From Thermococcus sp. (lineage in GTDB: Archaea; Methanobacteriota_B; Thermococci; Thermococcales; Thermococcaceae): a DNA stretch of 64,000 bases. Every line of letters begins with the position of its first letter. Positions within the stretch are counted from its first letter, which is position 1. The stretch is from contig NZ_JALXBJ010000088.1 in assembly GCF_026991495.1 (NCBI RefSeq), positions 1 to 64,000 of the forward strand. The letters are read 5' to 3'. Positions 119 to 4,120 of this stretch are shown here, piece after piece. The notes under the pieces are model-generated. The model saw only the letters and a list, made by a program, of their open reading frames with translations. It was not told where the DNA came from and searched no databases. A program made the position numbers and the translations under genes.

Positions 119-307
119 CAGTTTCAGGTTCAACCTCACAGGATTTTAGCAGTTGGGGCCAGGCAATGGAGAAAAGAGAACGTTATTCGTTCGCTACAAG
201 TGGTAACTCTAAGGGGATAAAGGGCGTAATGCCGCTCCGCGAAGGTTTGAGTAGTCGAGGGAAAGGAGCATGTTTTGAGTTGGCGGGTTTAAAAGATTCG
301 CCGTTTG

Positions 308-419
308 TGAAAGTGGACTTTTACAAAAAGCCCAAATTATGAAAGCTCACTTTCATAAACCGCCGTTTTTATGAAAATTGACTTTCACCAACCGCACCAT
401 CTATGAAAACGGGCTTTCA
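308..419. repeat. Array of four 16-bp dyads with exact 32-bp period
   Basis: TGAAAGTGGACTTTTA (308-323), TGAAAGCTCACTTTCA (340-355), TGAAAATTGACTTTCA (372-387), TGAAAACGGGCTTTCA (404-419); each start is 32 bp from the previous one. Confidence 0.9.
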
Positions 420-466
420 GGGCAGGCCAAGGGTTAGATGGAAAACAAAGTGAGGGAGAAAAACCC

Positions 467-1414
467 TCAAACCTTAATCCCGCCCATGACGAGGGCCATA
501 ACCGCTTTCTGGGCGTGCAAGCGGTTCTCTGCCTGGTCGAAGACTACGCTGTTCGGACTGTCTATGACGTCGTCAGTAACTTCCTCGCCCCTGTGGGCCG
601 GGAGGCAGTGCATGAAGATGTAATCAGGTTTAGCGTGCTTTACAAGCTCCTTGTTGACCTGGAAGGGCCTGAATATCTTTCTCCTCTGCTCTGCTTCTGC
701 CTCCTGTCCCATGCTCGCCCAGACGTCGGTGTAGATGACGTCGGCGTCTTTAACGGCTTTAGCCGGGTCGTGGAGGAGCTCAAAGGAACCACCGCTCTCG
801 GCCGCGTTCTTCTCGGCCCACTTGATAACCCTCTCGTCAGGCTCGTAGCCCTCGGGTGTTGCAACTACAACGTTTGCCCCGAGCTTTGTGCCCGCTATCA
901 TGAGTGAATGTGCCACGTTGTTCCCATCGCCGACGTAGACGATTTTAAGGCCCGCTATGCGACCCTTCTTTTCGAGTATTGTCTGGTAGTCCGCTAAAGC
1001 CTGGCATGGATGACTGAAGTCGCTTAAACCGTTTATGACGGGAACGCTCGCGTACTTGGCGAGGTCTTCAACATCTTTGTGGGCGTAAACCCTCGCCATT
1101 ATCCCGTCTACGTACCTGCTGAGAACTCTAGCCGTGTCGGCAATCGTCTCCCCCCTACGGAGCTGTAAATCCTGGGCGTTGAGGTAGAGGCCGTAGCCAC
1201 CGAGCTGATAGATGCCAACCTCGAATGAAATCCTCGTTCTCGTTGACGGCTTCTGGAAAATCATTGCCAGAGTCTTCCCCTCAAGAACGCGGTGCGGCTT
1301 TCCAATCTTGTTCCATATCTTCATCATCTCGGCCGTCTTGAGAATCGTCTCAAGCTCCTCCCTCGTGAAGTCTTGAAGGCAGAGGACGTCCCTTCCGGCA
1401 AGGCTAACCACCAT
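467..1414 (-). CDS. argF: Ornithine carbamoyltransferase
   Basis: MVVSLAGRDVLCLQDF...FQKPSTRTRISFEVG...FMHCLPAHRGEEV; hallmark STRT and HCLP motifs. Confidence 0.95.
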   Translation of the reverse strand: MVVSLAGRDVLCLQDFTREELETILKTAEMMKIWNKIGKPHRVLEGKTLAMIFQKPSTRTRISFEVGIYQLGGYGLYLNAQDLQLRRGETIADTARVLSRYVDGIMARVYAHKDVEDLAKYASVPVINGLSDFSHPCQALADYQTILEKKGRIAGLKIVYVGDGNNVAHSLMIAGTKLGANVVVATPEGYEPDERVIKWAEKNAAESGGSFELLHDPAKAVKDADVIYTDVWASMGQEAEAEQRRKIFRPFQVNKELVKHAKPDYIFMHCLPAHRGEEVTDDVIDSPNSVVFDQAENRLHAQKAVMALVMGGIKV

Positions 1415-1680
1415 GTGCATCACCGTCTAAGGCTGGGGAGGGAGTTTAATAACCCTTTCGTCGTATTGGATGGCCCTATTCTGAAATTCTTTGGATTTAG
1501 AGCTGGAGGGATTTTCCAAAGGTAATGGCGCAAACGACCTGGACTGATACCCGCTATGCCTCGGTGCCTCCTGTTGCGCCTGGGGTGCCAACGCTTCCGC
1601 TCAGAGCGAACGTTTGTGAAATCCTTTTAAGGACTTTACCGCTCTGCTTTAATTGAGACGGTGCCCAGGAAGGTGGTTCA

Positions 1681-2461: not shown

Positions 2462-4120
2462 GTGGCAGGCATGGATGATAAAATCCGGATAACCCTTGTC
2501 AACTATACAAAGAGACCCCTTGAAACTGTCACCTGGGCGGCACTGATAAGCTACTGGGAGGGCTGGGAAACCGGGGCCTTTGAGCGGATGAGCGAGAAGG
2601 ACGTCGAGATGCACCTCCCGAGGGTTCTCGGCTACGGCCACGAGTCAATCCTTGAGCACGCGACGCTGACCTTTGCCATTGAGGGATGTTCTCGCGTTTG
2701 CAGCCATCAACTAGTTAGACATAGGCTCGCAAGCTATACCCAACAGTCACAGCGGTATCAATTCGTGTCTTCTGTAGATTTAAAGGAATACAAACTTCCC
2801 GAGCCCTCAGGGGAAAAGAGAAACCCGCACTGCAAGCTCAGCATAAACCAGGAAGAGGAGATCGTCAAATGGTACCTTGAAGATGGCCTCTCGTCGTGGC
2901 AAATAGCGAAGATAGTAGGGCTTCACCCCACTTCGGTTCTCTCAATACTAAGGGCGTATGGCGTCAGCCCGCGGAAAGCTGGGGAAGCTTACAACGGAAG
3001 GATCGTGAATGAGAACTTCTTCGAGGATATCAGCGATCCGGACAGGGCTTATATCTTAGGTTTTATCATGGCAGACGGCAGCATCAACGAGGCAAGGAAT
3101 GCCCTTATAATTGATCAGAAAAACCTCGAAAAAACCCTCCTAATAGAGATAGCAGAGCATATTGGACGTGGAATACGGGTAAGGGCTCAAAAGGGCAGGA
3201 ACACCGTCAGGCTATGGGTTGGAAACAAGAAGCTAATCGAAGACCTCAAGAGGTGGGGAGTTTCAGAGAGAAAGGCGAAAACCCTAAGTTTTGAGAGGGT
3301 TATCAAAGGGATGTCCAAAGACCTCTGGCCCCACTTTCTCAGGGGCTACCTGGATGGGGACGGGTACATTAAGGTGGTCTTCAAGGACGGTACTTTCCAG
3401 AGGGCTGAGGTGACGTTCGTTAGCTCGAGCAAGAAGGCCCTTGAAGATACGATGTTTATGCTGTCTGAGCTGGGGCTTCCCGAGGGTGCATTGAGATACT
3501 ATGAAAACAGAGAGGTTGGATACCTCCGCTACACCAAGGGCAGGAGTTCCGAAGAACTGCTAAGAATCCTCTACAGAGATGCTGATCCATTCCTGACAAG
3601 GAGAGCCAACCTACTCAAGGTCCTTGCCGTTCTTCCAGAGCTTAGGGGGAGGATTCAGAGCGCCATACGCAGGAGACTCGCAGAGTATGAGTTCACAATA
3701 CCCGAAAGCGTTTTGGAGGATCCATTTTTAGCGTACCGCTGGTACGACCTGATGAGAGACGCTAGGGATCTCTACGTTAAGTCCGTCCAGGAGGGGGTTC
3801 CAAAAGAGGACGCGCGCTTCATCCTACCCCAGGCTGTGAGGACGAAGATAGTTGTCACGATGAACCTCCGCGAGCTGAAGCACTTCCTCGGTCTGAGGGC
3901 CTGCGAGAGGGCCCAGTGGGAGATAAGGGAAGTTGCATGGAAGATGTTAGAGGAGATAGCGAAGAACGAAGAGCTTAGGCCGATAATAAAGTGGGCGAAG
4001 CTCGGGCCACGCTGTATACAGCTCGGCTACTGCCCCGAGGGCGAGCTTATGCCCCCCGGCTGCTGGAAGAGAACGAGGGAGAGATGGAAGGGACTGCTCT
4101 CTGCCGTTAGGGAAGATTGA
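2462..4120 (+). CDS. thyX: Flavin-dependent thymidylate synthase ThyX, interrupted in frame by a LAGLIDADG endonuclease
   Basis: N part carries the ThyX motif [15 protein letters not shown] part ...[41 protein letters not shown] is ThyX; one continuous frame. GTG start at 2462 or ATG at 2471. Confidence 0.9.
2761..3682 (+). mobile_element. In-frame LAGLIDADG homing endonuclease insertion (HTH + two LAGLIDADG motifs) inside thyX
   Basis: Motifs [12 protein letters not shown] and [14 protein letters not shown]-terminal HTH-like [43 protein letters not shown]; boundaries approximate, placed where ThyX-like sequence stops and resumes. Confidence 0.85.

What the first reader, a model, noticed from the sequence alone, without database searches (positions are those of the whole stretch)
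308..419. Four 16-bp dyads at exactly 32-bp period in a convergent intergenic region
Seen: TGAAAG/TGAAAA-n4-CTTTCA/CTTTTA units start at 308, 340, 372 and 404, with 16-bp unrelated spacers. The exact period is about three helical turns, so all dyads would face the same side of DNA; as RNA they would be four small hairpins, and unit 1 keeps pairing through a G-U. The region sits between two gene 3' ends (stop at 87 plus; argF stop at 467 minus), so a normal promoter operator is not expected. It could be a protein-binding array, a structured terminator/ncRNA or a CRISPR-like fossil.
Basis: partly seen in the sequence, partly recalled or inferred. Interest (0 to 1): 0.75.

Follow-up and report, generated by a model that had tools for sequence, protein, structure and literature searches.

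The report
Orphan operator of a lost ATPase
Four evenly spaced mirror-image DNA words in a heat-loving archaeon turn out to be protein docking sites that elsewhere sit exactly at the start of a widespread, uncharacterised gene thought to fight viruses; here the gene is missing and only its probable control switch remains, and comparison suggests that each gene of this family carries its own private switch.

Summary
In detail: four TGAAAR-N4-CTTTYA dyads start at exactly 32-bp steps (308/340/372/404). They are conserved: 32 of 61 genomes of the genus carry 2-5 such dyads, always in the argF-NSUN (RNA m5C methyltransferase) spacer, and the 24-bp dyad has no other clear copy in those genomes. The two flanking half-site bases (R before, Y after) vary independently, so the units are double-stranded protein sites, not RNA hairpins. 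All 15 orthologues of one AAA_14-wHTH-DUF4143 ATPase (a PDC-S01 candidate defence protein) have this array ending 3 bp before their ATG with the TATA box between the last two dyads, including 5 in other genera. Other DUF4143 ATPases, in Thermococcales and in distant archaea and Bacteroidota, also tend to carry paired dyads 31-35 bp apart, with a different word per gene. Best reading: a cooperative operator, probably bound by the ATPase's own winged helix. In the window the ATPase is absent and the array stands beside a pseudogenised NSUN 5' end, so it is probably an orphan. It is also kept in ATPase-less genomes where it abuts the intact NSUN promoter, so a second role there is open. Binding and autoregulation are inferred, not shown.

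The parts
304..327 (.). dyad 1 (core TGAAAGTGGACTTTTA 308-323), next to the NSUN promoter remnant; one core mutation
336..359 (.). dyad 2 (core TGAAAGCTCACTTTCA 340-355)
368..391 (.). dyad 3 (core TGAAAATTGACTTTCA 372-387)
400..423 (.). dyad 4 (core TGAAAACGGGCTTTCA 404-419), next to the argF 3' end; outer flank on the argF side degraded
288..300 (-). remnant BRE/TATA of the NSUN promoter (CGAATCTTTTAAA read on the minus strand), at the same distance from the proximal dyad as in relatives
   Evidence: comparison with about 15 relatives
225..271 (-). broken 5' end of the NSUN (RNA m5C methyltransferase) gene; the intact gene is on contig C69 of the same genome
1..87 (+). C-terminal end of an inserted DUF4932 gene
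467..1423 (-). argF (ornithine carbamoyltransferase); the array lies just past its stop

Best explanation
The array is a cooperative operator: each 24-bp dyad binds one protein dimer, and the 32-bp step (about three helical turns) puts neighbouring dimers on the same face so that they can contact each other. In its complete form it is the promoter of a single-gene AAA_14-wHTH-DUF4143 ATPase (PDC-S01 class): the TATA box lies between the last two dyads and the last dyad ends 3 bp before the ATG, so occupancy would block TBP/TFB and RNA polymerase. The most likely binder is the ATPase itself through its internal winged helix, giving negative autoregulation. In the window's genome the ATPase gene is absent and the array is an orphan, next to a pseudogenised NSUN start, probably decaying. 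Shown: anatomy, conservation, 15/15 linkage to the ATPase start, absence of that ATPase from this genome assembly, absence of base-pair covariation. Inferred: self-binding, repression, cooperative contacts, and the loss history in this lineage.
For: (1) 15/15 full orthologues of the ATPase (10 in the genus, 5 in other genera) have the array directly upstream; at least three (G089, G103, G104) lie at unrelated loci without argF/NSUN sequence. (2) Exact two-dyad 32-bp matches in distant genomes fall at the start of AAA_14/DUF4143-type ATPases: L146, L162, L164 (archaea), L178 (a 'WOR-3' bin), L139 (Sphingobacteriaceae). (3) Family trend: 24 of 27 DUF4143 promoters in 12 Thermococcales reach the control 95th percentile for paired dyads 29-37 bp apart (p=3e-15; the top control is an NSUN promoter bearing this array). 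In other archaea/Bacteroidota 11 of 23 score >=20 against 4 of 84 neighbouring ORFs (p=4e-6). Words differ between paralogues. (4) The protein has Walker motifs, a wHTH-like stretch and an intact E-x-D...E-V-K nuclease motif; the predicted fold's best PDB match is the DNA-bound AAA+-wHTH initiator Orc1/Cdc6 (2qby, E=7.6e-8). (5) Half-site bases vary independently; core columns vary far less than other columns (p=6e-7 and 5e-5 in two groups). (6) G113 holds an orphan array beside an eroded piece of the ATPase gene (residues 401-439 at 72%) at the locus type of G103/G104; G022 holds a broken ATPase with a decayed array at argF-NSUN. (7) Arrays separated from a promoter, including the window's, carry more core mutations (8/23 units against 10/92, p=0.009, classes assigned by hand after the arrays were seen).
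Against: No binding or expression data. In 22 ATPase-less genomes the array persists; in one ATPase-less clade core columns are unchanged (0/30 against 26/48 others), so another protein may bind there, or losses were recent. The NSUN BRE next to ATPase-less arrays looks ancestral, so simple deletion of the ATPase does not obviously produce that junction. The half-site word TGAAA is also that of the Lrp-type regulator FL11 (own knowledge), which is not excluded. Promoters in the family test are not independent (about 13 gene groups among 27; 3 are this ATPase), and some groups score at background. The structure model is only moderately confident (mean pLDDT 72; global TM to 2qby about 0.4).
Confidence: 0.68

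Rival explanations
1. The array is an operator or upstream activating site for a host regulator (for example an Lrp/AsnC-type protein) that controls the NSUN RNA methyltransferase gene; the ATPase gene later slipped in between and captured it.
For: In about 15 ATPase-less genomes the proximal dyad abuts the NSUN BRE/TATA at a nearly constant distance; the core is conserved in an ATPase-less clade; clusters of dyads with two- or three-turn spacing are typical of archaeal Lrp proteins (PMC2995911).
Against: At least three ATPase copies in other genera carry the array with no NSUN near; distant archaea have such arrays at DUF4143 genes; about half of the genus genomes lack the array, many with NSUN still beside argF; a host regulator with a single locus per genome is unusual.
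Confidence: 0.2
2. A single-locus chromosome-organising or segregation site (parS-like), or an integration hot spot marker.
For: One locus per genome; the argF-NSUN spacer accumulates inserted genes.
Against: Absent from half of the genomes; its place changes with the ATPase gene; insertions occur there with or without an array; promoter-fitted geometry.
Confidence: 0.04
3. RNA element: four hairpins forming a terminator or small RNA.
For: The strand folds better than shuffles (z -3.58).
Against: Any palindrome gives this; A-C and G-U combinations are as frequent as Watson-Crick pairs at the flanking position (26+25 against 33+28); no Rfam match at the gathering score; in 15 genomes the dyads flank a TATA box upstream of the start codon.
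Confidence: 0.03

Closest known systems
Operators of archaeal Lrp/AsnC regulators (Ss-LrpB own control region, Ptr2 targets, FL11)
   Same: Several imperfect dyads phased by helical turns near a promoter; cooperative dimers; autoregulation (PMC2995911)
   Different: The linked gene encodes an AAA+ ATPase with a nuclease-like domain, not an Lrp protein; dyad words are gene-specific across a paralogous ATPase family
Orc1/Cdc6 initiators and their origin (ORB) repeats
   Same: AAA+ plus winged helix binding repeated DNA sites; best fold match of the ATPase (2qby)
   Different: Here the repeats are promoter dyads; a DUF4143 PD-(D/E)XK-like domain follows the wHTH; no origin context was tested
PDC-S01 candidate defence family (AAA_14-DUF4143)
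   Same: The linked ATPase matches PDC-S01 models (E=4e-34) and Pfam AAA_14 and DUF4143 over cut-off; reported as the fourth most common defence across prokaryotes, unvalidated (PMC12988326)
   Different: The passages read on this family mention no cis-regulatory array
CRISPR arrays
   Same: Regular spacing of partly palindromic units
   Different: Non-identical 16-24 bp units, 16-bp intervals, promoter position

Membership tests
PDC-S01 / AAA_14-DUF4143 ATPase self-operator (proposed) | Array directly upstream of a DUF4143 ATPase, TATA between the last two dyads | tested here: met
   15/15 orthologues in relatives
PDC-S01 / AAA_14-DUF4143 ATPase self-operator (proposed) | ATPase gene present at the window's own array | tested here: not met
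   No orthologue in G000; no remnant found in the window. The window copy is therefore called an orphan, not a complete module
PDC-S01 / AAA_14-DUF4143 ATPase self-operator (proposed) | The ATPase binds the array | not testable with these tools
   needs EMSA/footprint
Lrp/AsnC-type operator | Multiple 13-17 bp dyads at two- or three-turn spacing | tested here: met
   16-bp core, 32-bp step; criterion from PMC2995911
Lrp/AsnC-type operator | Bound by an Lrp protein, or linked to an lrp gene | tested here: inconclusive
   No lrp-type gene is the constant neighbour of the arrays; binding not testable
CRISPR array | Near-identical repeats with unrelated spacers | tested here: not met
   Units differ and intervals are partly conserved
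Structured RNA | Compensatory base changes | tested here: not met
   Independent R/Y positions in 116 units

The most novel reading that the evidence does not exclude
DUF4143/PDC-S01 ATPases, a very large uncharacterised candidate defence family of archaea and bacteria, commonly carry their own operator of dyads about three helical turns apart, with a private word read by each protein's own winged helix, so that many paralogues are regulated in parallel without cross-talk; when a gene is lost the operator can stay behind as a footprint or be taken over by the neighbouring housekeeping promoter, as in this window's lineage.
Probability: 0.5. Interest if true: 0.75.

Novelty: new variant of a known kind. 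Interest (0 to 1): 0.6.

Why it matters
PDC-S01/DUF4143 ATPases are reported as the fourth most common defence candidate in prokaryotes and remain unvalidated (PMC12988326); I found no paper on their regulation in the open library. A recognisable, gene-specific operator would say when they are silent, offer a direct binding assay, help to assign start codons and complete modules, and let lost copies be traced by their footprints. It would also be a set of orthogonal wHTH-word pairs within single genomes.

Tried and rejected
CRISPR fossil: unit and interval structure do not fit. RNA hairpins/terminator: covariation absent although the folding energy is low. Rfam: nothing at the gathering threshold; three chance-level matches. 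parS/oriC-type site: absent from half of the genus. Viral/mobile origin: five exact matches in viral contigs, all unlike the extended dyad. A TTGAAA...TTTCAA variant was not found in 115 genomes of the phylum. Many bacterial exact matches belong to other genes (RpiR-type regulators; a ParA-like ATPase gene in Bacteroidales) and were not used as support. A first control set drawn from loci chosen for the pattern was biased and was replaced. Sequence search of the ATPase profile against PDB found nothing. Literature terms DUF4143/PDC-S01 hit only 4 open papers.

Full report
Observation. The four dyads are exactly where reported, at a constant 32-bp step. The pattern with one mismatch occurs nowhere else in the window and exceeds all 100 shuffles. 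The symmetry extends to about 24 bp.

Conservation. A two-dyad pattern at 32-bp spacing was found in 32 of 61 genomes of the genus, in every case examined in the spacer between argF and the gene of an RsmB/F-type RNA m5C methyltransferase (NSUN). The reversed control pattern has no hits in that search. The 24-bp dyad has no clear match elsewhere in these genomes; one weak hit in G064 was not placed. A logo of 116 units gives GCANTTTRTGAAAGYNNRCTTTCAYAAANGGT. The core barely varies while loop and spacer do.

DNA, not RNA. The base before TGAAA is A or G and the base after TTTCA is C or T. The four combinations occur 28 (A-T), 33 (G-C), 26 (A-C) and 25 (G-T) times. Pairing would disfavour A-C. 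Each half-site therefore prefers R on its own, as expected for two monomers of a dimer. The low folding energy follows from the palindromes.

The setting in the window. In relatives without insertions, the proximal dyad abuts the BRE/TATA of the NSUN gene (..TTTCACAAACGAAGAACCTTTTAAACC..ATG). In the window the same junction is recognisable at 300-269 on the minus strand, but only a broken NSUN start follows. A DUF4932 gene has been inserted, and the intact NSUN gene is on contig C69 of the same genome with another copy of that gene type. G074 shows the complete arrangement argF - array - NSUN remnant - DUF4932 gene - NSUN. Hence the convergent layout is derived.

The partner gene. In ten genus genomes a 439-aa ATPase gene lies between the array and NSUN. 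These ten are the only ones of 61 with that ATPase at E<=1e-60. The gene starts 3 bp after the last dyad, and a TATA box (CTTATAA) lies between the last two dyads. Five genomes of other genera have the orthologue with the same array. In G082 and G090 short NSUN-derived pieces follow the gene, suggesting transfer from the argF-NSUN locus; in G089, G103 and G104 no such pieces are seen and the loci are unrelated. The array thus goes with the ATPase. Pfam assigns AAA_14 and DUF4143 with a weak winged-helix match, and PADLOC PDC-S01. The alignment keeps the Walker motifs and E-x-D...E-V-K. The predicted structure's best PDB match is a DNA-bound Orc1/Cdc6 initiator; the model is of moderate confidence.

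A family habit. An exact two-dyad scan of GTDB genomes hit, besides Thermococcales, the starts of AAA_14/DUF4143-type ATPases in a Euryarchaeota bin, a Thermoplasmata bin, a Micrarchaeota bin, a 'WOR-3' bin and a Sphingobacteriaceae bin. Other hits belong to unrelated genes. I then took DUF4143 genes irrespective of any pattern and scored their upstream regions for two similar dyads 29-37 bp apart: 24 of 27 reach the control 95th percentile (p=3e-15). Words differ by paralogue: TGGTAC..GTACCA (24/24), GATACT..AGTATC (24/24), TTTACC..GGTAAA, TTTGTG..CACAAA, TGTTTT..AAAACA and others. In genomes of other phyla, 11 of 23 score at least 20 against 4 of 84 neighbouring ORFs (p=4e-6). These 23 come from genomes that contain an exact array hit somewhere, and at least two of the hit genes are among them (L255, L262), so the sample is not fully independent. 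Further caveats: orthologues repeat within the 27 (about 13 groups), starts were chosen by rule with some by hand, and several groups score at background.

Mechanism. The gene-specific word, shared by orthologues and different among paralogues, is most simply explained if each ATPase reads its own operator with its own winged helix. Dimers on dyads 32 bp apart face the same side and can interact, as described for archaeal Lrp proteins (PMC2995911). Dyads on both sides of the TATA box and at the start codon predict repression. None of this has been tested at the bench.

The orphan. No orthologue was found in the window's genome (assembly about 95% complete) and no remnant in the window. Arrays without a promoter beside them carry more core mutations (8/23 units against 10/92, p=0.009; post hoc classes), and within the window's own clade core and other columns do not differ significantly (4/40 against 15/64, p=0.12). 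In G113 an orphan array stands beside an eroded C-terminus of the ATPase at another locus, direct evidence that such orphans form. Against a purely dead relic elsewhere: an ATPase-less clade with intact NSUN has 0 of 30 core columns variable. The NSUN tree shows ATPase, array-only and no-array states intermingled, consistent with repeated exchange or loss. I therefore hold open that in those genomes the array has been taken over by the NSUN promoter.

Verdict. The window copy is probably a relic; its interest lies in the system it points to.

Noticed in passing
window 2462-4120: The thyX ORF is 552 aa, about twice the usual length, with an insert that reads like a LAGLIDADG-type intein; relatives have ~250-aa ThyX (c2).
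   Followed up: no
L162:875-922 and L162:2158-2205: Identical 48-bp two-dyad arrays, in the same orientation, at both ends of a DUF4143 ATPase gene (895-2181 -) in a Thermoplasmata bin; a possible mobile cassette with terminal repeats.
   Followed up: partly
argF-NSUN spacer in L051-L108: Insertion hot spot: different ATPase genes (AAA_14-DUF4143, ATPase_2-DUF234), DUF4932 genes and others are inserted there in many Thermococcales, with duplicated fragments of NSUN and argF as scars (also G000 contig C69:1-350).
   Followed up: partly
L141, L148, L153, L158, L161, L165, L169, L174, L177: Bacteroidales and similar bins carry TTGAAA-N6-TTTCAA dyads at 32 bp upstream of a ParA-like ATPase gene (MENEKTPLYVAFSTQKGGVGKTT...), conserved over many genomes.
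   Followed up: no
L142, L155, L157, L172: The same 32-bp spaced dyad type precedes RpiR-like regulator genes in Proteobacteria, probably autoregulatory operators.
   Followed up: no
G090 (L212:1122-6400): The ATPase with its array sits next to a Cas1/Cas2/Cas4-like gene set, with pieces of NSUN-locus DNA around it, suggesting transfer of the whole block.
   Followed up: no
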